Assembly: GCA_037442505.1 (NCBI GenBank)
Contig: JBBIPZ010000006.1
Location: forward strand, 40,007-104,006
Direction of reading: 5' to 3'
Source: JBBIPZ01 sp037442505 [NCBI: Deltaproteobacteria bacterium]
GTDB taxonomy: Bacteria; CALINM01
Length of the DNA stretch: 64,000 bases
The notes under the pieces: model-generated
Database searches by the model: none
What the model was told of the DNA's origin: nothing
The model's input: only the letters and a program-made list of their open reading frames with translations
Made by a program: the position numbers and the translations under genes
In this document: positions 19,495-64,000 of the stretch, piece by piece
Layout of the letters: every line of letters starts with the position of its first letter
Position numbering within the stretch: the stretch's first letter is position 1

Positions 19495-19710
19495 ATGACA
19501 AAAAATAAAAAGCTTGTTATAAATTTTAACAGGTGTAAAGGATGTCAACTTTGCGTCAGTTTTTGTAATAAAAAGGCTTTAGCCTTGGGAAAGAAAATAA
19601 ACAAGTTAGGCTATCGTTGTATAGTTCTGGAAAATGAAGATGCATGTGTATCTTGTGGTTTGTGTGCCGAGATATGTCCTGATGCAGTTATAGAAGTCTG
19701 GAGGATTTAA
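19495..19710 (+). CDS. korD: 2-oxoglutarate:ferredoxin oxidoreductase delta subunit (ferredoxin-like)
   Basis: 71 residues with two 4Fe-4S motifs, CKGCQLCVSFC near residue 14 and CVSCGLCAEICP near 51. It is the first gene of a four-gene oxidoreductase cluster, and its stop overlaps the korA start (TAATG). In the family this subunit passes electrons between the TPP/Fe-S core and external ferredoxin. GAGG precedes the ATG by about five bases. The order D-A-B-C is that of the oor genes of Epsilonproteobacteria. Confidence 0.9.
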   Translation: MTKNKKLVINFNRCKGCQLCVSFCNKKALALGKKINKLGYRCIVLENEDACVSCGLCAEICPDAVIEVWRI

Positions 19711-20759
19711 TGGAGAAGCTTTTTTTAAGAGGAAGTGAAGCACTCGCTTTAGGTGCTATAGATGCTGGATTAAAATTTTATGCTGGGTATCCTATTACAC
19801 CGCAAAATGATATCCCGGAATTTTTGTCCAGAGAATTACCAAAAGTTGGTGGCAAGTTCATTCAGGCTGAAAGTGAAGTTGCATCTATCAATATGTTATT
19901 GGGTGCAAGTGCCTGTGGCATAAGGGTTATGACCTCTTCTTCAAGTCCCGGTATTTCACTAATGCAGGAAGGCATATCTTATTTAGCTGGTTCAGAACTA
20001 CCAGCTGTAATTGTGAACGTAACACGGTGGGGACCAGGACTTGGTGGTATTGGAGCTTCTCAAGGGGATTATTATCAGGCTACTAAAGGTGGAGGACATG
20101 GAGATTACTTTACACCCGTGTTTTCGCCTTTTTCTGTTCAAGAAATGTATGATTTGATTATTAAGGCCTTCGATGTTGCAGATAGATATAGAACGCCAGT
20201 GATATTTTTGTCAGATGTTATGGTTAGTTTGATGAAGGAGCCTGTTGAAAGAAAATTTGCTAGTGGAGTTAACCTTCCAGAAAAGCTATGGGCTTTTGGT
20301 GAACAAAAGGGTGAAAAACAAAAAATAATTAAGTCTTTGTATCTAAAAGGTCACGATCTCGAACATCATAACTGGAAACTTTATAAACGTTTTCAAGAAA
20401 TCAAAGAAAAAGAAATTTTGGTTGATAAATATATGTGTGATGATGCGGATACAATTATCGTTGCCTTTGGTATGGTTGCAAGAATTGCAAGAACAACTGT
20501 TGATATAGCGAGAGAATCTGGCATTAAATTAGGTTTATTTAGACCTGTAACATTGGTACCTTATCCAGAGGACGATCTCGAAAAACTTGCTGAAAAATGC
20601 AACAAGTATCTTGTTGCAGAGATGAATACGGGACAGATGCTTTATGATGTTAAAAGGATATTAGGTAAATCTGTTAACATTGGATTTTATGGCAAACCAA
20701 GTAGTTATGCACCAACGCCAGAAGAGCTTTTAAATAAAGTTAAGGAGCTTTATTTATGA
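19710..20759 (+). CDS. korA: 2-oxoglutarate:ferredoxin oxidoreductase alpha subunit
   Basis: 349 residues. The N-terminal pyruvate-ferredoxin-oxidoreductase domain I contains GYPITPQNDIPEF near residue 30, QAESEVASINMLLGAS near 53 and TSSSSPGISLMQEG near 76. The C-terminal domain II holds LFRPVTLVPYPE. With korB it forms the thiamine-diphosphate enzyme that interconverts 2-oxoglutarate and succinyl-CoA plus CO2 with ferredoxin. This is oxidative in the TCA cycle and carboxylating in the reductive cycle. Substrate assignment rests on the four-subunit oor-like organisation; a branched-chain keto-acid enzyme cannot be fully excluded. Confidence 0.9.
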   Translation: MEKLFLRGSEALALGAIDAGLKFYAGYPITPQNDIPEFLSRELPKVGGKFIQAESEVASINMLLGASACGIRVMTSSSSPGISLMQEGISYLAGSELPAVIVNVTRWGPGLGGIGASQGDYYQATKGGGHGDYFTPVFSPFSVQEMYDLIIKAFDVADRYRTPVIFLSDVMVSLMKEPVERKFASGVNLPEKLWAFGEQKGEKQKIIKSLYLKGHDLEHHNWKLYKRFQEIKEKEILVDKYMCDDADTIIVAFGMVARIARTTVDIARESGIKLGLFRPVTLVPYPEDDLEKLAEKCNKYLVAEMNTGQMLYDVKRILGKSVNIGFYGKPSSYAPTPEELLNKVKELYL

Positions 20760-21508
20760 AAATGATTTATAAAAAGCCAGATGTGTTAAAAGATGTTGCC
20801 TTTCACTTTTGCCCGGGTTGTAATCACGGAAATGCGCATAAGTTAGTTGCAGAAACAATCTCAGAATTAGGCATTCAAGATAATTGCATAGCTGTTATTG
20901 GTGTGGGATGTGGAGTTTTTTTATACGATTACATTGATGTAGATTCACTGGAGGCTCCGCATGGCAGAGGTCTTGCCGTTGCTACGGGAGTTAAAAGAGC
21001 GCGTCCTGAAAGGATTGTTTTTACATATCAGGGTGACGGAGATCTGGCTGCGATAGGTATGGCAGAAACGGTTCATGCTGCTAACAGAGGAGAAAACTTG
21101 ACTGTTATTTTTATAAATAACACTATTTATGGTATGACAGGTGGTCAGATGGCCCCAACTACGCTTTTAGGACAAATCGCAACGACTGCACCTTATGGAA
21201 GAGAGTTCCAGCGTGATGGTTATCCAATAAGGATGGCAGAAATGCTTGCCACTTTAGAAGGGGTTGCTTACTCAACTCGTGTAGCTTTTACAACACCAAA
21301 ACAGATAATTGATGCAAAAAAGGCAATAAAAAAGGCATTTGAGATGCAAATCAATAATATGGGGTTTAGTTTTGTAGAAGTGTTGTCTGCATGTCCTACC
21401 AACTGGAATATGCAACCGCTCGAAGCATTGAAAAGGGTAGCAGAAGAAATGATACCATTTTTTCCCTTGGGGACATTTAAAGAAAGGAGTATTTCTGATG
21501 TCCTTTAA
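20756..21508 (+). CDS. korB: 2-oxoglutarate:ferredoxin oxidoreductase beta subunit (TPP-binding)
   Basis: 250 residues of the TPP-binding subunit. FCPGCNHGNAHK near residue 18 and GVGCGVFLYDY near 49 belong to the cofactor and Fe-S region. TYQGDGDLAAIG, with its downstream Asn (INNTIYGMTGGQ), forms the Mg-TPP motif. It overlaps korA by four bases and korC by eleven. The LEAPHGRGLAVATG segment is typical of this branch. Confidence 0.93.
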   Translation: MKMIYKKPDVLKDVAFHFCPGCNHGNAHKLVAETISELGIQDNCIAVIGVGCGVFLYDYIDVDSLEAPHGRGLAVATGVKRARPERIVFTYQGDGDLAAIGMAETVHAANRGENLTVIFINNTIYGMTGGQMAPTTLLGQIATTAPYGREFQRDGYPIRMAEMLATLEGVAYSTRVAFTTPKQIIDAKKAIKKAFEMQINNMGFSFVEVLSACPTNWNMQPLEALKRVAEEMIPFFPLGTFKERSISDVL

Positions 21509-22076
21509 AAATTCACATTTTTATAAAGATTTTGTTTTTGCTGGCTTTGGTGGACAAGGGATTTTGATCTCAGGAACATTGTTGTGTTATGCCGCTTTAA
21601 AAGAAGGAAAAGAAGTTACATTTTTCCCCTCTTATGGCGTAGAAATGAGAGGAGGGGCGGCAAATTGTTATGTCGTTATATCAGATAAAAAAATTGGGTC
21701 TCCAATTCCTTCTACGCCTGAGTATGCTATTATTATGAGTTCTCCAGCTCTTGATAGATTTCAGAACGTTGTCAAGAAAGGGGGAGTGTTATTCATTAAT
21801 GATGACATTGTTCAAAAGGAAGATGTGGTTCGTGATGATGTGAATAAATTGTTTATTAGCGCTAATAAAATTTCTAATGATGTCGTCGGTAATGATAAGC
21901 TTGCCAATATGGTGATACTTGGTTATGTTGCTGCTATGGCTGATGTTGTTCAAGTTCAAAGCCTTATTGCATCTATCAAAGACGTGGTTAGTGAGAAACA
22001 TAAAAGATTTATACCTCTAAACGAAAAGGCTATTATTGCAGGCGCAGAACATTATAACTCAAGCAAAGGTGACTAA
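21498..22076 (+). CDS. korC: 2-oxoglutarate:ferredoxin oxidoreductase gamma subunit
   Basis: 192 residues of the gamma domain. FAGFGGQGILISG near residue 13 and PSYGVEMRGGAANC near 48 are the standard signatures. It completes the enzyme encoded by the three preceding genes. An AAGGAG-type site lies just before the ATG, within korB. The stop is two bases before the next ATG, which links the regulator gene to the operon. Confidence 0.93.
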   Translation: MSFKNSHFYKDFVFAGFGGQGILISGTLLCYAALKEGKEVTFFPSYGVEMRGGAANCYVVISDKKIGSPIPSTPEYAIIMSSPALDRFQNVVKKGGVLFINDDIVQKEDVVRDDVNKLFISANKISNDVVGNDKLANMVILGYVAAMADVVQVQSLIASIKDVVSEKHKRFIPLNEKAIIAGAEHYNSSKGD

Positions 22077-45563: not shown

Positions 45564-45953
45564 CTATTTTTTATTTTCCCTGTAATTTTTTACAGCTGCT
45601 TCAATTGCCTGTTGGGCAAGAACTGAACAATGTATCTTTGCGGGTGGCAACCCCCCAAGAGCCTCTGCAACGGTATCATTAGTTACTTTAAGAGCCTCTT
45701 CAATTGTTTTGCCTTTAATCATTTCTGTTACCATACTGCTTGATGCAATTGCTGCTCCACAACCAAATGTCATAAATTTGGCATCCTCAATCACTTCGTT
45801 TTCACCTATCTTTAAATATAACCTCATAACATCTCCACACGAAGGATTACCAACTTCTCCTATTCCATTGGCATCGGGAATCTCTCCCATGTTTCTGGGA
45901 TTTAAAAAATGTTCCATAACTTTCGGACTGTAAGGTCCCTGTGCATCCGCCAT
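45564..45953 (-). CDS. iscU: Fe-S cluster scaffold IscU/NifU-N
   Basis: 129 residues with the three scaffold cysteines at 39 (NPSCGD), 65 (TFGCGAA) and 109 (KIHCSV), and the stabilising Asp41. It assembles 2Fe-2S and 4Fe-4S clusters for transfer to apo-proteins. The length fits a stand-alone IscU/NifU N-domain. AGGAGG precedes the ATG. The gene follows the NifS-like gene by 22 bases; that partner lacks the PLP lysine, so the sulfur source is uncertain. Confidence 0.95.
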
Positions 45954-45975: not shown

Positions 45976-47211
45976 TTATTTATCTACCTTTGTCATTTTT
46001 GGCGTGTGTCCTTTTATCTTATCAAGATAGAATGGCGACATCTGCCATAATCTTTGGACAATTCCCGGAAAAATTTCAAGTACATAATCTATCTCTTCTT
46101 CAGTATTTTTTACGCCGAGACTAAACGTAAGTGATCCGGTGCATATATCAGATGGAACTCCGATCGCCTTTAAAACTGGGGAAGCAATAAGCTCTTCTTC
46201 ATCTCTTGCGCGAAGATTGGAACTGCACGCAGAACCACTCGATACCATCACACCCATGTAGTTAAGCATAAGGAGCAAAGACTCGCCTTCTGCAAACTCA
46301 ATCCAAAAACTCAGGTTGTTAGGTAATCTTGATTTTAAAGAGCCTGTGAAATGGAGAAAATCAATCTTTTCTTCTAAACCTTTTTGTAATCGATCTCTTA
46401 ACTTCTTAAGATATTCAATTCTTTCCTGCATTTCTATATCTGCAAGCTCGCAAGCCTTTGCAAAACCAACAATTGCAGGCATATTCTCCGTGCCTGAACG
46501 AAGCCCTTTTTCTTGGAAACCACCTTCTATCAACGGAGAAATAAGAACACCATTCTTAACATAAAGTGCAGCCACGCCTTTTGGACCATAAAGACTGATG
46601 GCAGAAAATGTTAATAAATCTACCCCCAGCTCATTTACATCTATATTCGTCAGTCCAGCCGCTGCAGTAGCGTCTGTGTGAAAGATTATTTTGTCATTAT
46701 AAGATTTAACAAATTTGACGAGATCTTTTATATTTTGAATGACACCTATTTCGTTATTTGCAAGCTGGATAGAAACCAGTCTCGTTTCTGGAGTTAATAA
46801 ATTTCTCAGTTGAGTTTCATCCACAAAACCATCATTATCGACATCAACAAAAGAAGCCTTGAATCCAAACTTATTAACTAATGTAGATACAGGAGAAGTT
46901 ATACTAAAATGCTCTATATTTGAAACAATCATATGATTGCCCTTGTAGATATTAGAAAAAGCCACACCTTTTAATGCCAGGTTATTTGACTCCGTAGCAG
47001 AGGCACAAAATGTTATCTCTTCAGGCTTAGCATTAATGAAATTGGCAACAACTTTCCTTGCATCATCAAGGGCCCTCACAGCTTCATTCCCAACTTTTAT
47101 TATGTGGGAAGATGGATTGCCAAATTTTTCAATAAAATAAGGTTTCATTGCTTCAAACACCCGTTCATCAACGGGAGTTGCATTTGCATAGTCCATAAAA
47201 ATTTCTTTCAT
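45976..47211 (-). CDS. NifS/IscS-like protein lacking the PLP-binding lysine
   Basis: 411 residues aligning along its length with cysteine desulfurases. FMDYANATPVDERV opens it, His101 (NIEH), Asp180 (FHTDAT), the RSGTENMP segment at 238-245 and the loop Cys329 (SSGSACSS) are present. However, the Schiff-base motif SxHKxYGPKG reads SAISLYGPKG: residue 205 is Ile instead of His and residue 206 is Ser instead of Lys. The Gln that contacts PLP (ATQ) is Ala183. Each change needs more than one base and the frame is intact, so error is unlikely. It should not bind PLP covalently or release sulfur. It sits directly before iscU. A role as a scaffold partner or Cys ligand donor is inferred. Confidence 0.8.
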   Translation of the reverse strand: MKEIFMDYANATPVDERVFEAMKPYFIEKFGNPSSHIIKVGNEAVRALDDARKVVANFINAKPEEITFCASATESNNLALKGVAFSNIYKGNHMIVSNIEHFSITSPVSTLVNKFGFKASFVDVDNDGFVDETQLRNLLTPETRLVSIQLANNEIGVIQNIKDLVKFVKSYNDKIIFHTDATAAAGLTNIDVNELGVDLLTFSAISLYGPKGVAALYVKNGVLISPLIEGGFQEKGLRSGTENMPAIVGFAKACELADIEMQERIEYLKKLRDRLQKGLEEKIDFLHFTGSLKSRLPNNLSFWIEFAEGESLLLMLNYMGVMVSSGSACSSNLRARDEEELIASPVLKAIGVPSDICTGSLTFSLGVKNTEEEIDYVLEIFPGIVQRLWQMSPFYLDKIKGHTPKMTKVDK

Positions 47212-47255: not shown

Positions 47256-47990
47256 TCAATAAAAAACTTCATACAGATATAATCCCTGAGGAGGGGCAGT
47301 CCTTCCAGCTTTTCTTCTATCTCTTTGTTCTAAAATATTTTTAAAATCATCCAAGCTAATCTTACCCCTCCCTACATCAACCATCGTCCCTACAATTATT
47401 CTAACCATATTATGCAAAAAACCGTTTGCCGTAATTGTAAAGATTAATTTATCTCCCTCTTTTAGCCAGTTTGCTTCATAAACTGTTCTTACAGGGTTTT
47501 TTCGTGAACAGATGCTTGCGCGAAATGAAGAAAAATCAAGGGTTCCTACAATCATAGAAGCTGCTTTATTCATTAAATCAATATCAAGTGGATAACTTAT
47601 TTGCCAGCAAAAGTTTCGAAAGAGTGCCGTTGGCGTTTTAGAATTAAGTATAACATAGCGATAACTTTTCTTTTTTGCGGAAAAGCAAGCATGAAAGCCG
47701 TCAGGAACTATCTCAACCCTCTTAATCCTTATGTCAGGTGGCAATAAACTATTTAAACCAAAAAGATATGCTTCCAATGGAAGATTTTTTTTTGTGCTGA
47801 AATGAAAATACTGATTTATTGCATGTACGCCTGCGTCTGTTCTGCCAGAGCCAAAAATATACACCTTCTCATCAAGTAACGTTGATAATTTTTCTTCGAT
47901 AACTTCTTGAATGGTTATTTGTCCCTTTTGCCTCTGCCAACCGTAGTAGTTACTTCCGTCATACTCCACATTAACTTTAAAATTAGGCAT
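47256..47990 (-). CDS. truA: tRNA pseudouridine(38-40) synthase
   Basis: 244 residues with the catalytic Asp in GSGRTDAGVHA near residue 52, plus the YDGSNYYGWQRQ N-terminus and FLHNMVRIIVGTMVDVGRG near 190. It modifies positions 38-40 of many tRNA anticodon stems. It is divergent from the ferredoxin gene. TATAAA on the minus strand (48004-47999) lies eight bases before the ATG, with no ribosome site between. Confidence 0.95.
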   Translation of the reverse strand: MPNFKVNVEYDGSNYYGWQRQKGQITIQEVIEEKLSTLLDEKVYIFGSGRTDAGVHAINQYFHFSTKKNLPLEAYLFGLNSLLPPDIRIKRVEIVPDGFHACFSAKKKSYRYVILNSKTPTALFRNFCWQISYPLDIDLMNKAASMIVGTLDFSSFRASICSRKNPVRTVYEANWLKEGDKLIFTITANGFLHNMVRIIVGTMVDVGRGKISLDDFKNILEQRDRRKAGRTAPPQGLYLYEVFY

Positions 47991-62739: not shown

Positions 62740-64000
62740 ATTGAATTTTGGCTCCCCGTGTGCAACCCTCTTTATAACCGTTCTCCACTCGGATGTCAAT
62801 CCGAAAGCGTATCATTCAACGAGTTATCAAAGAGCACGCCGTTCCGGCAGGCCGGAAGCGGTGTTGACCTGGATTTCATCCCTCTGCCTGACAATCACCA
62901 GATTTCATGGCTTGCTCCCGGACTTCTTGACTTCATAGATCATATCATGGTGAAGCCGCTGAAGATCGCGCTGCGTCAGTTCCTTCAGGGATCGGATCGG
63001 TTTCTTGAGGGCCAATCGCTCTTGCGCCAGCAGATAGAGGTCGTCTTTGGAAATCCCAAGCTCGCCCGCGCGTGCATAGATCGGCTTGTATAGACTTTCC
63101 TTCCATTTATCAGGGGCACTCCTGCGGATCTTGGGTCTTGCCATCGCGACCTGGGCCTGAAGCCATTGAATCGCGCGGTCGGAATCTTGGACTGGAATCT
63201 CCTTGTAGCTGTTCACGTTGAATTCGTTTTTCAGGCTGCTCCAAATTCGTTGCGCGGCACGCTGCGTGTCTTTGCCCGCCGTCGTGTGGATATCGATATA
63301 ATCCTTCACCAGGTCCTGGATTTTGCGAGCCACCGTGTTTGAAATGTGTCTGCCGCCCGGATCGGTCTGAACAACCACCTTGCGAACCACTCGTTTGGTA
63401 CGGATGTTCAAGTCCCGTCCGGCAACCATGTTGCCATTTCCTGAAACCGCCTGAATGACCTGGGGCGAATCGCTGGAAAGCGGCGTGAGCGTATTCATCT
63501 CTTCGACTTTCGAGAACCATGTGTCACGATGCTTTCGGAGCTCGCTCTCGGAAAACTTACGTCCTCTTGGATGCTGATCGTTGTAGTGTTCAACATCCGC
63601 GTGGCAATCAAAGCACAGAGGTATACAGTTCTCAAAGCAGTCCTCTCCTCCTTTGGAGGTGGGCCGAATGTGGTTCGTCTCGATCCTGACACCACAGAAC
63701 CTGTGGCAGATGCAACAGCAGCATCCCGAGGCAACGAGCGCCACATCAACGACTTCTTTTGATAAACTCATTGCCACCTCCGGAAATCCATCGGCTCTTG
63801 CACTCCGGACCAGGATGCCGCAGATGACAGGGAAATATGACTCCGCTCTGGCTTACGGGTATTGTCAAACTCAAGGAGCCTTGAAGGCACCATTCTCATT
63901 GCCTCCACTTGAACATCCTATCCACCTGGAGGACGGTATTCGTCGAAATATGACCCAAGGTCATTGGCCGAGAATTATTGCAGAACGATTCGACATACAC
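62740..64000. other. GC-rich segment of foreign composition
   Basis: From about 62740 to the window end the base composition changes abruptly from AT-rich to clearly GC-rich, with G/C-ending codons in its only gene. The boundary is sharp, just after the hairpin at 62690-62716. No integrase, transposase ends or tRNA repeat is seen at the edge. It may be a horizontally acquired island or a misassembled or contaminant join. The stretch 62740-62904 holds an imperfect inverted repeat (TTCCGG at 62842-62847 and CCGGAA at 62852-62857). I find no supportable gene in 63772-64000. Confidence 0.7.
62905..63771 (-). CDS. HNH endonuclease fused to an ORF6C-like phage regulatory domain
   Basis: 288 residues from the ATG at 63771, with GGAGGTGG at good spacing; a GTG six bases earlier overlaps that site. 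Residues 15-65 carry an HNH nuclease: CCICHRFCG, ETNHIRPTSKGGEDCFENC and PLCFDCHADV, a zinc-type HNH with two Cys pairs. Residues about 105-120 read AVSGNGNMVAGRDLNI, a beta motif often seen in phage and defence proteins. The C-terminal part (RKIQDLVKDYIDIHTT, LKNEFNVNSYKEIP) resembles ORF6C of phage antirepressor-like proteins, followed by KPIRSLKELTQRDLQRL. Its codon use is unlike every other gene here. A role in phage regulation or defence is inferred. Confidence 0.75.
   Translation of the reverse strand: MSLSKEVVDVALVASGCCCCICHRFCGVRIETNHIRPTSKGGEDCFENCIPLCFDCHADVEHYNDQHPRGRKFSESELRKHRDTWFSKVEEMNTLTPLSSDSPQVIQAVSGNGNMVAGRDLNIRTKRVVRKVVVQTDPGGRHISNTVARKIQDLVKDYIDIHTTAGKDTQRAAQRIWSSLKNEFNVNSYKEIPVQDSDRAIQWLQAQVAMARPKIRRSAPDKWKESLYKPIYARAGELGISKDDLYLLAQERLALKKPIRSLKELTQRDLQRLHHDMIYEVKKSGSKP

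What the first reader, a model, noticed from the sequence alone, without database searches (positions are those of the whole stretch)
45976..47211. Cysteine desulfurase homologue next to iscU with no PLP lysine
The gene encodes a full-length NifS/IscS aligned protein whose catalytic SxHK motif is SAIS (Ile205, Ser206) and whose PLP-contact Gln is Ala183, while the mobile-loop Cys329 and the fold motifs remain. Codons at 46594-46599 are AGT and ATC, each at least two changes from Lys and His, so this is not a single error. As I recall, Archaeoglobus fulgidus IscS also lacks this lysine and was found bound to IscU. A bacterial counterpart in an operon with an intact scaffold suggests Fe-S assembly with sulfide as the sulfur source, or a structural partner that supplies a Cys ligand.
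Basis: partly seen in the sequence, partly recalled or inferred. Interest (0 to 1): 0.75.

Follow-up and report, generated by a model that had tools for sequence, protein, structure and literature searches.

The report
Lysine-less IscS partner of IscU
A bacterial gene that should make the sulfur-releasing enzyme for iron-sulfur cluster building has lost the enzyme's key active-site residues but kept its loop cysteine and its partner gene, and relatives in several lineages look the same, often in genomes where no other cluster scaffold was detected.

Summary
It is no local mutation: all three held genomes of the nearest phylum carry a 69-72% identical Lys-less orthologue, under purifying selection where measurable. 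Among 120 aligned homologues 30 lack the Lys; in all 30 Lys206 and Arg362 are gone while Cys329, His101 and Asp180 stay. The Lys-less proteins come from at least three phyla; one Lys-less clade is compatible with the data, not proven; A. fulgidus IscS groups with three of them. Nineteen of 30 lie beside iscU. SUF was detected in 3 of 28 such genomes against 230 of 358 others; in 13 of 28 the Lys-less IscS-IscU pair is the only scaffold detected. A Lys-bearing desulfurase is present in 29 of 29 genomes, beside mnmA in 3 of 3 of the nearest phylum. Best reading: a desulfurase-dead platform and cysteine donor for IscU, sulfur coming as sulfide or from elsewhere. Inactivity and sulfur source are inferred. 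The type is known from A. fulgidus and M. acetivorans IscS1; breadth and sole-scaffold role look new.

The parts
45976..47211 (-). Lys-less IscS/NifS homologue, 411 aa
   Evidence: ORF; TIGR03402 411.8 bits, below its cut-off 530.75; PF00266; AlphaFold model mean pLDDT 82.4, Z 48.6 to 4eb5 A. fulgidus IscS-IscU
46594..46599 (-). codons ATC AGT: Ile205 Ser206 in place of His-Lys
   Evidence: sequence; Lys 90 of 90 in Lys+ rows, 0 of 30 in Lys-less rows
46663..46665 (-). codon GCA: Ala183 in place of Gln
   Evidence: sequence; Gln 90 of 90 Lys+, 6 of 30 Lys-less
46126..46128 (-). codon ACG: Thr362 in place of a conserved Arg (recalled as the substrate-carboxylate Arg)
   Evidence: sequence; Arg 88 of 90 Lys+, 0 of 30 Lys-less
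46225..46227 (-). codon TGC: Cys329 of the mobile loop, kept
   Evidence: sequence; Cys 30 of 30 Lys-less, 90 of 90 Lys+
45564..45953 (-). iscU, 129 aa, with the three cysteines and NPSCGD
   Evidence: TIGR03419 204.1 bits, PF01592; three Cys in 18 of 18 IscU compared from beside Lys-less iscS
47256..47990 (-). truA upstream; same order truA-iscS-iscU in L001, truA-iscS in L002 (contig ends there)
   Evidence: PF01416; ORF lists

Best explanation
The gene encodes a conserved IscS-family protein that has given up cysteine desulfuration and serves as dimeric platform and cysteine donor for IscU. Shown: loss of Lys206, His205, Gln183 and Arg362 with retention of Cys329, the fold and the iscU neighbour, here and in close relatives; purifying selection between two of them; in 13 of 28 genomes no other scaffold detected. 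Inferred: the protein cannot release sulfur from cysteine by itself; it holds IscU and offers Cys329 as a cluster ligand, as published for A. fulgidus IscS; cluster sulfur arrives as sulfide, from the medium or set free by the Lys-bearing desulfurase, which in the nearest phylum sits beside mnmA and probably serves tRNA thiolation.
For: Lys-less orthologues in 3 of 3 genomes of the nearest phylum and in 4 of 4 of another small phylum; 30 Lys-less proteins with K206 and R362 lost in 30 of 30 but C329, H101, D180, R238 kept in 30 of 30; dN 0.086, dS 1.64 between the G001 and G002 copies; 19 of 30 beside iscU; SUF in 3 of 28 versus 230 of 358; 13 of 28 genomes with a single IscU, beside the Lys-less gene, and no SUF hit; Lys+ paralogue next to mnmA in 7 of 29 (G001, G002, G003, G014, G166, G303, G301); A. 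fulgidus IscS, reported inactive and a Cys ligand donor (PMC7585200 passages), also lacks Arg at 362; H2S rescues an E. coli iscS mutant but not an iscU mutant (PMC13015791 abstract).
Against: No biochemistry. His101 and Asp180 (recalled PLP contacts) are invariant, so some PLP or ligand binding may persist. COX1-family hits are not rarer in Lys-less genomes: any hit in 12 of 28, strong in 7 of 28, against any hit in 172 of all 386, so a tie to anoxic, sulfidic life is not borne out. A Lys-bearing desulfurase is present in all 29 genomes, so sulfur in trans is possible. Completeness of the genomes is not stated; missing SUF or a second IscU may be gaps. G004, G095, G363 and G151 have a Lys-bearing desulfurase beside its own IscU/NifU.
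Confidence: 0.57

Rival explanations
1. Persulfide relay in trans: Cys329 receives a persulfide from the Lys-bearing paralogue or another sulfur carrier and passes it to IscU; the protein is a sulfur relay, not only a ligand donor.
For: Cys329 is invariant (30 of 30; GSAC in 29, GSSC in one) and a Lys+ desulfurase is present in 29 of 29 genomes.
Against: The A. fulgidus structure is reported with the Cys as cluster ligand (PMC7585200 passages). I did not search for rhodanese or TusA-type carriers.
Confidence: 0.23
2. Non-canonical enzyme: PLP is bound without a Schiff base, or the protein pairs with the Lys+ paralogue in a mixed dimer, and some sulfur or other chemistry remains.
For: H101, D180 and R238 stay invariant, which a purely structural role would not obviously need.
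Against: Positions 183, 205, 206 and 362 drift to many residues, not to one fixed substitute; the A. fulgidus protein is reported inactive.
Confidence: 0.12
3. The protein has moved to a role outside Fe-S assembly.
For: 11 of 30 are not beside an iscU in the stretch read, three of these near contig ends.
Against: 19 of 30 are beside iscU, in 13 of 28 genomes the only IscU found.
Confidence: 0.06
4. Decaying gene or sequence error in the window.
For: None beyond the missing residues.
Against: Full-length frame; Lys-less in 3 of 3 nearest genomes; dN/dS about 0.05 between two of these.
Confidence: 0.02

Closest known systems
Archaeoglobus fulgidus IscS (IscS 2; PDB 4eb5, 4eb7, 4hvk, 4r5f)
   Same: Type I fold, no catalytic Lys (Asp199 by the title of 4r5f), complex with IscU, loop Cys kept, Leu at the position of Arg362; reported without desulfurase activity and as Cys ligand donor (PMC7585200 passages)
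   Different: Asp at the Lys site, Ser in the window; its C-terminal 127 residues group with the SSND trio, not with the window; A. fulgidus has SmsCB by a figure legend in PMC12192291, while G001-G003 gave no PF01458 hit. Only the C-terminal third of its sequence was compared
Methanosarcina acetivorans IscS1
   Same: Reported to lack the catalytic Lys, in an iscSU pair (PMC7585200 passages)
   Different: Archaeal; sequence not compared here; the genome has two further iscSU pairs, IscS2 active
MIS system (MisS-MisU), e.g. Helicobacter pylori MisSU
   Same: Two-gene system, sole Fe-S biogenesis proteins in H. pylori (PMC10653786 passages)
   Different: Described as having a cysteine desulfurase; the founding 2022 paper was not held, so how Lys-less forms relate to it is unknown
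E. coli / mitochondrial IscS-IscU core
   Same: Fold (3lvl Z 49.0) and IscU partner
   Different: Active PLP enzyme (established knowledge); E. coli also has SUF (control)
SMS (SmsC-SmsB)
   Same: Uses sulfide with no desulfurase component (PMC12192291 passages): a works-like comparison for the sulfur source
   Different: Unrelated scaffold proteins; PF01458 not found in 25 of 28 Lys-less genomes

Membership tests
Cysteine desulfurase (type I, NifS/IscS), as an enzyme | Class V aminotransferase fold over the full length | tested here: met
   PF00266 239 bits; model Z 48-49 to IscS structures
Cysteine desulfurase (type I, NifS/IscS), as an enzyme | PLP lysine in SxHK | tested here: not met
   SAIS
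Cysteine desulfurase (type I, NifS/IscS), as an enzyme | Conserved Arg recalled to hold the substrate carboxylate | tested here: not met
   Thr362
Cysteine desulfurase (type I, NifS/IscS), as an enzyme | Mobile-loop Cys | tested here: met
   Cys329
Cysteine desulfurase (type I, NifS/IscS), as an enzyme | Sulfur release from cysteine | not testable with these tools
   needs protein
NCBIfam NifS TIGR03402 / IscS TIGR02006 | Score over the curated cut-off | tested here: not met
   411.8 vs 530.75 and 348.4 vs 643.2 bits
A. fulgidus-type Lys-less IscS | No Lys, loop Cys kept, iscU partner | tested here: met
A. fulgidus-type Lys-less IscS | Common descent with A. fulgidus IscS after loss of the Lys | tested here: inconclusive
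   30 Lys-less rows as one clade not rejected (p-AU 0.68, lnL 18 higher), but the quick tree had two groups and in the C-terminal tree starred branches force at least two changes
A. fulgidus-type Lys-less IscS | Cys as cluster ligand, no PLP | not testable with these tools
   needs protein
IscU-type scaffold (for the neighbour) | NifU_N domain, three Cys | tested here: met
   PF01592 174 bits; three Cys
IscU-type scaffold (for the neighbour) | Score over the cut-off of the iscU equivalog TIGR01999 | tested here: not met
   163.4 vs 192.4; it passes TIGR03419 NifU_clost instead
MIS (MisS-MisU) | Placement in the MIS clade | not tested
   defining paper not held, no reference sequences used

The most novel reading that the evidence does not exclude
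A widespread class of prokaryotic Fe-S assembly systems works without a desulfurase of its own: a Lys-less IscS and IscU form the only housekeeping scaffold of these cells and build clusters from sulfide, while the true desulfurase is kept for tRNA thiolation.
Probability: 0.38. Interest if true: 0.8.

Novelty: new variant of a known kind. Interest (0 to 1): 0.62.

Why it matters
The standard picture couples IscU to a desulfurase. A conserved IscS without the catalytic residues, often with no other scaffold detected in the genome, would mean that the role of the IscS dimer as platform and ligand donor is separable from sulfur release, and that direct use of sulfide may be a living strategy in bacteria and not only in archaea. 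It makes the question of what IscS does besides making persulfide testable, with thirty natural variants at hand.

Tried and rejected
Rejected: sequence error or decaying gene (orthologues; dN/dS). Rejected: a purely local oddity (30 Lys-less proteins). Not upheld: a link with anaerobic life. COX1-family hits were strong (E below 1e-50) in 7 of 28 Lys-less genomes, weak in 5, none in 16 (0 of 3 in G001-G003), i.e. any hit in 12 of 28 against 172 of all 386; for this I lowered the novel case from 0.40 to 0.38 and the best explanation from 0.58 to 0.57. Two independent losses of the Lys were suggested by the quick tree and by starred branches of the short C-terminal tree, but the clade test found a better tree with all 30 together; I claim neither.

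Dropped rows: L085 and L008 came out Lys-less but are distant proteins (29% and 26%) whose motif is misaligned; they are not counted. L063, L060 and L007 (under 34% identity, scored Lys+) were left out of the alignment and tree, as were type II-like L207-L209, L220, L221, the partial L236 and duplicate loci. The read proteins are the best hits of a profile built from Lys-less proteins, so 28 of 386 is a lower bound, not a frequency, and other genomes of the 358 may hold unread Lys-less copies. In G090's phylum (2 genomes) one is Lys-less and the hits of the other, G099, were not read. The tool does not name the G genomes; treekit.origins gave a domain only for loci of the contig scan.

Literature: eight searches, seen as listings of at most 20 rows, and one that returned nothing showed me no report of a bacterial Lys-less IscS; the library lacks most subscription papers and the MIS founding paper was not held.

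Full report
Observation. The reading frame at 45976-47211 (-) is complete, 411 aa. The bases at 46594-46599 read ATC AGT on the coding strand, Ile205 Ser206, where IscS proteins have His-Lys. Gln183 is Ala; Cys329 is in SGSACSS. I add Arg362 to Thr; from memory this Arg holds the carboxylate of the substrate cysteine. After 22 bp comes iscU: over the cut-off of TIGR03419 NifU_clost (204.1 vs 187.9), under that of TIGR01999 iscU (163.4 vs 192.4). The IscS-like protein scores below the curated cut-offs of NifS (411.8 vs 530.75) and IscS (348.4 vs 643.2).

Nearest relatives. No genome is held for the window. A scan of genome contigs gave eight loci, two of them close: L001 (70%) and L002 (69%), from two bacterial MAGs. 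A genome search added G003 (72%). All three lack the Lys (SPTS, SPTS, SPIS). The collection holds three genomes of G001's phylum and all three carry it. That the window's host belongs to this phylum is inferred from the likeness. Gene order truA-iscS-iscU is shared by the window and L001; in L002 the contig ends in iscS. G001 against G002 gives dN 0.086, dS 1.64, so that pair is under strong purifying selection; comparisons with the window are saturated or near it at synonymous sites, with dN 0.23-0.26.

A family. A profile of 13 Lys-less proteins (A1) was searched in 386 genomes around G001, a broad unnamed sample, and in the small phyla of G090 (2 genomes) and G045 (4 genomes). I read the DNA of the best hits, not of all: 113 distinct desulfurase-like frames. 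With five distant ones left out and 12 from the paralogue search added, 120 were aligned. Thirty lack the Lys: the window and one protein in each of 29 genomes, 28 of these in the 386 set. They include 3 of 3 genomes of G001's phylum, 4 of 4 of G045's and 1 read of 2 in G090's. Domain is told only for the contig-scan loci (Bacteria); beside the G045 gene lies a protein whose best NCBIfam match is DNA polymerase III subunit delta', below its cut-off, which speaks for a bacterium. At the Lys site stand Gln 10, Ser 7, Arg 4, Asp 3, Val 2, His 2, Asn 1, Thr 1.

Pattern of loss. Forty columns are one residue in 97% or more of the 90 Lys-bearing proteins. Of these, K206 and R362 are kept in 0 of 30 Lys-less proteins, Q183 in 6, T11 in 9, H205 in 11, G214 and S324 in 15, Y5 in 18, N152 in 19; the other 31 are kept in 27 or more, and D7, E74, H101, H178, D180, R238, N243 and C329 among others in 30 of 30. 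So the Lys end of the pocket is dismantled family-wide and the loop cysteine is not. Position 332, three after the Cys, is Lys, Asn or Arg in 29 of 30, but Gly in 58 of 90 Lys-bearing proteins, so the loop itself is altered. H101 and D180, which I recall as PLP contacts, are retained; this is the best reason not to call the PLP site dead.

Tree. With the trait columns left out, a quick tree put 27 Lys-less rows in one group (SH-aLRT 90) with two Lys-bearing rows inside (L170, L173, which lack Arg362), and three SSND rows apart. A test found a tree with all 30 together 18 log units better (p-AU 0.68); one origin is allowed, not proven. The C-terminal 127 residues of A. fulgidus IscS group with the SSND trio (SH-aLRT 96, 126 columns) and have Leu at 362; by BLAST score alone a Lys-bearing protein, L096, is first, and in that short tree starred branches force at least two changes of the Lys label.

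Partners and paralogues. Nineteen of 30 Lys-less genes lie within 1 kb of an iscU on the same strand (18 downstream, 1 upstream), against 26 of 81 frames scored Lys-bearing; three of the other 11 (L002, L076, L191) end within 650 bp of a contig end. Of IscU beside Lys-less genes, 18 of 18 compared keep the three cysteines; 11 of 18 have HCSN where 15 of 20 partners of Lys-bearing genes have HCSV. SUF core (PF01458, which also rings in M. jannaschii) was found in 3 of 28 Lys-less genomes in the 386 set (G301, G235, and weakly G266) against 230 of 358 others (Fisher p 2e-8, genomes not independent); against 54 genomes in which I had read only Lys-bearing copies it is 25 of 54 (p 0.001). PF01592 searches of all 29 genomes leave 13, of 28 tested for both families, with one IscU only, next to the Lys-less gene, and no SUF hit: G001, G003, G090, G059, G045, G014, G205, G102, G131, G100, G190, G166, G303. 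G101 was not tested for SUF. Other scaffolds were not searched for.

In 28 of 29 genomes a Lys-bearing type I desulfurase is also present (in G102 cut by a contig end), and in the 29th (G235) a type II one. It is followed by mnmA in 7 of 29: G001, G002, G003, G014, G166, G303 and G301 (Pfam check on two); in G151 an iscS-iscU-mnmA run with Lys exists. A division of labour, one desulfurase for tRNA thiolation and a Lys-less one for IscU, is an inference from this anatomy.

Against. G004, G095, G363 and G151 have a Lys-bearing desulfurase with an IscU/NifU beside it, so there the Lys-less gene is not the only route. In G232, G216, G343, G334, G072, G089, G070, G095 and G363 no IscU lies next to the Lys-less gene in what was read, and IscU hits lie elsewhere. 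COX1-family hits are as common in Lys-less genomes (12 of 28) as overall (172 of 386). Genome completeness is not given.

Structure. The model (8 sequences, mean pLDDT 82.4; residues 31-36, 233-241, 328-341 and 400-411 under 50) matches IscS structures over its length: E. coli IscS-IscU 3lvl Z 49.0, A. fulgidus IscS-IscU 4eb5 Z 48.6, rmsd 2.1 over 373. These are tied and say nothing on function. By sequence the best PDB match is a Lys-bearing 'cysteine desulfurase' series, 9wep and variants; A. fulgidus IscS comes next.

Known background. PMC7585200 (passages): A. fulgidus IscS lacks activity because the essential Lys is Asp, and provides a Cys ligand to the cluster; M. acetivorans IscS1 also lacks the Lys. 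PMC13015791 (abstract): H2S rescues an E. coli iscS mutant but not an iscU mutant. PMC12192291 (passages): SMS uses sulfide, anaerobically; MIS is described as having a desulfurase. PMC10653786 (passages): MisSU are the sole Fe-S biogenesis proteins of H. pylori. PMC12442378 (passages): MIS and SMS definitions. My searches showed no report of a bacterial Lys-less IscS (listings only), in a library without most subscription journals.

Verdict. By the sequence features testable it resembles A. fulgidus IscS; it fails the definition of a cysteine desulfurase at the lysine. Sulfide as the sulfur source is the leading but unproven reading.

Noticed in passing
window 63000-64000: GC is 0.53, against 0.29-0.38 in the other windows profiled from 42000; the frame at 62905-63777 (-) looks by eye like an HNH-type protein. 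A foreign island or misjoined end is possible.
   Followed up: no
L170 and L173 (G368:C22, G105:C130): Two near-identical Lys-bearing desulfurases that lack Arg362 and fall inside the Lys-less group in the quick tree: an intermediate, a reversion or a misplacement.
   Followed up: partly
IscU partners, position 111 of the window's IscU in the alignment: HCSN in 11 of 18 IscU beside Lys-less genes, 1 of 20 beside Lys-bearing ones: possible co-change next to the third cysteine. The window's own IscU has Val.
   Followed up: partly
window 45976-47211, residues 332-342; L061, L001, L002, L064: Seven-residue insert shortly after the loop Cys in the window's group and L064, absent from the other eight rows of A1.
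   Followed up: no
L064:7899-9101, L066:2959-4167, L195:5135-6331: A flavodiiron-type protein (NCBIfam flavorubredoxin models below cut-off; Pfam ODP plus flavodoxin) lies within 3 kb of the Lys-less iscS-iscU pair in three genomes.
   Followed up: no
window 19710-22076 (+): Three frames that look by eye like a 2-oxoacid:ferredoxin oxidoreductase set.
   Followed up: no
L215 (G151): An iscS-iscU-mnmA run with Lys in a genome that also carries a Lys-less copy with a GSSC loop elsewhere.
   Followed up: no
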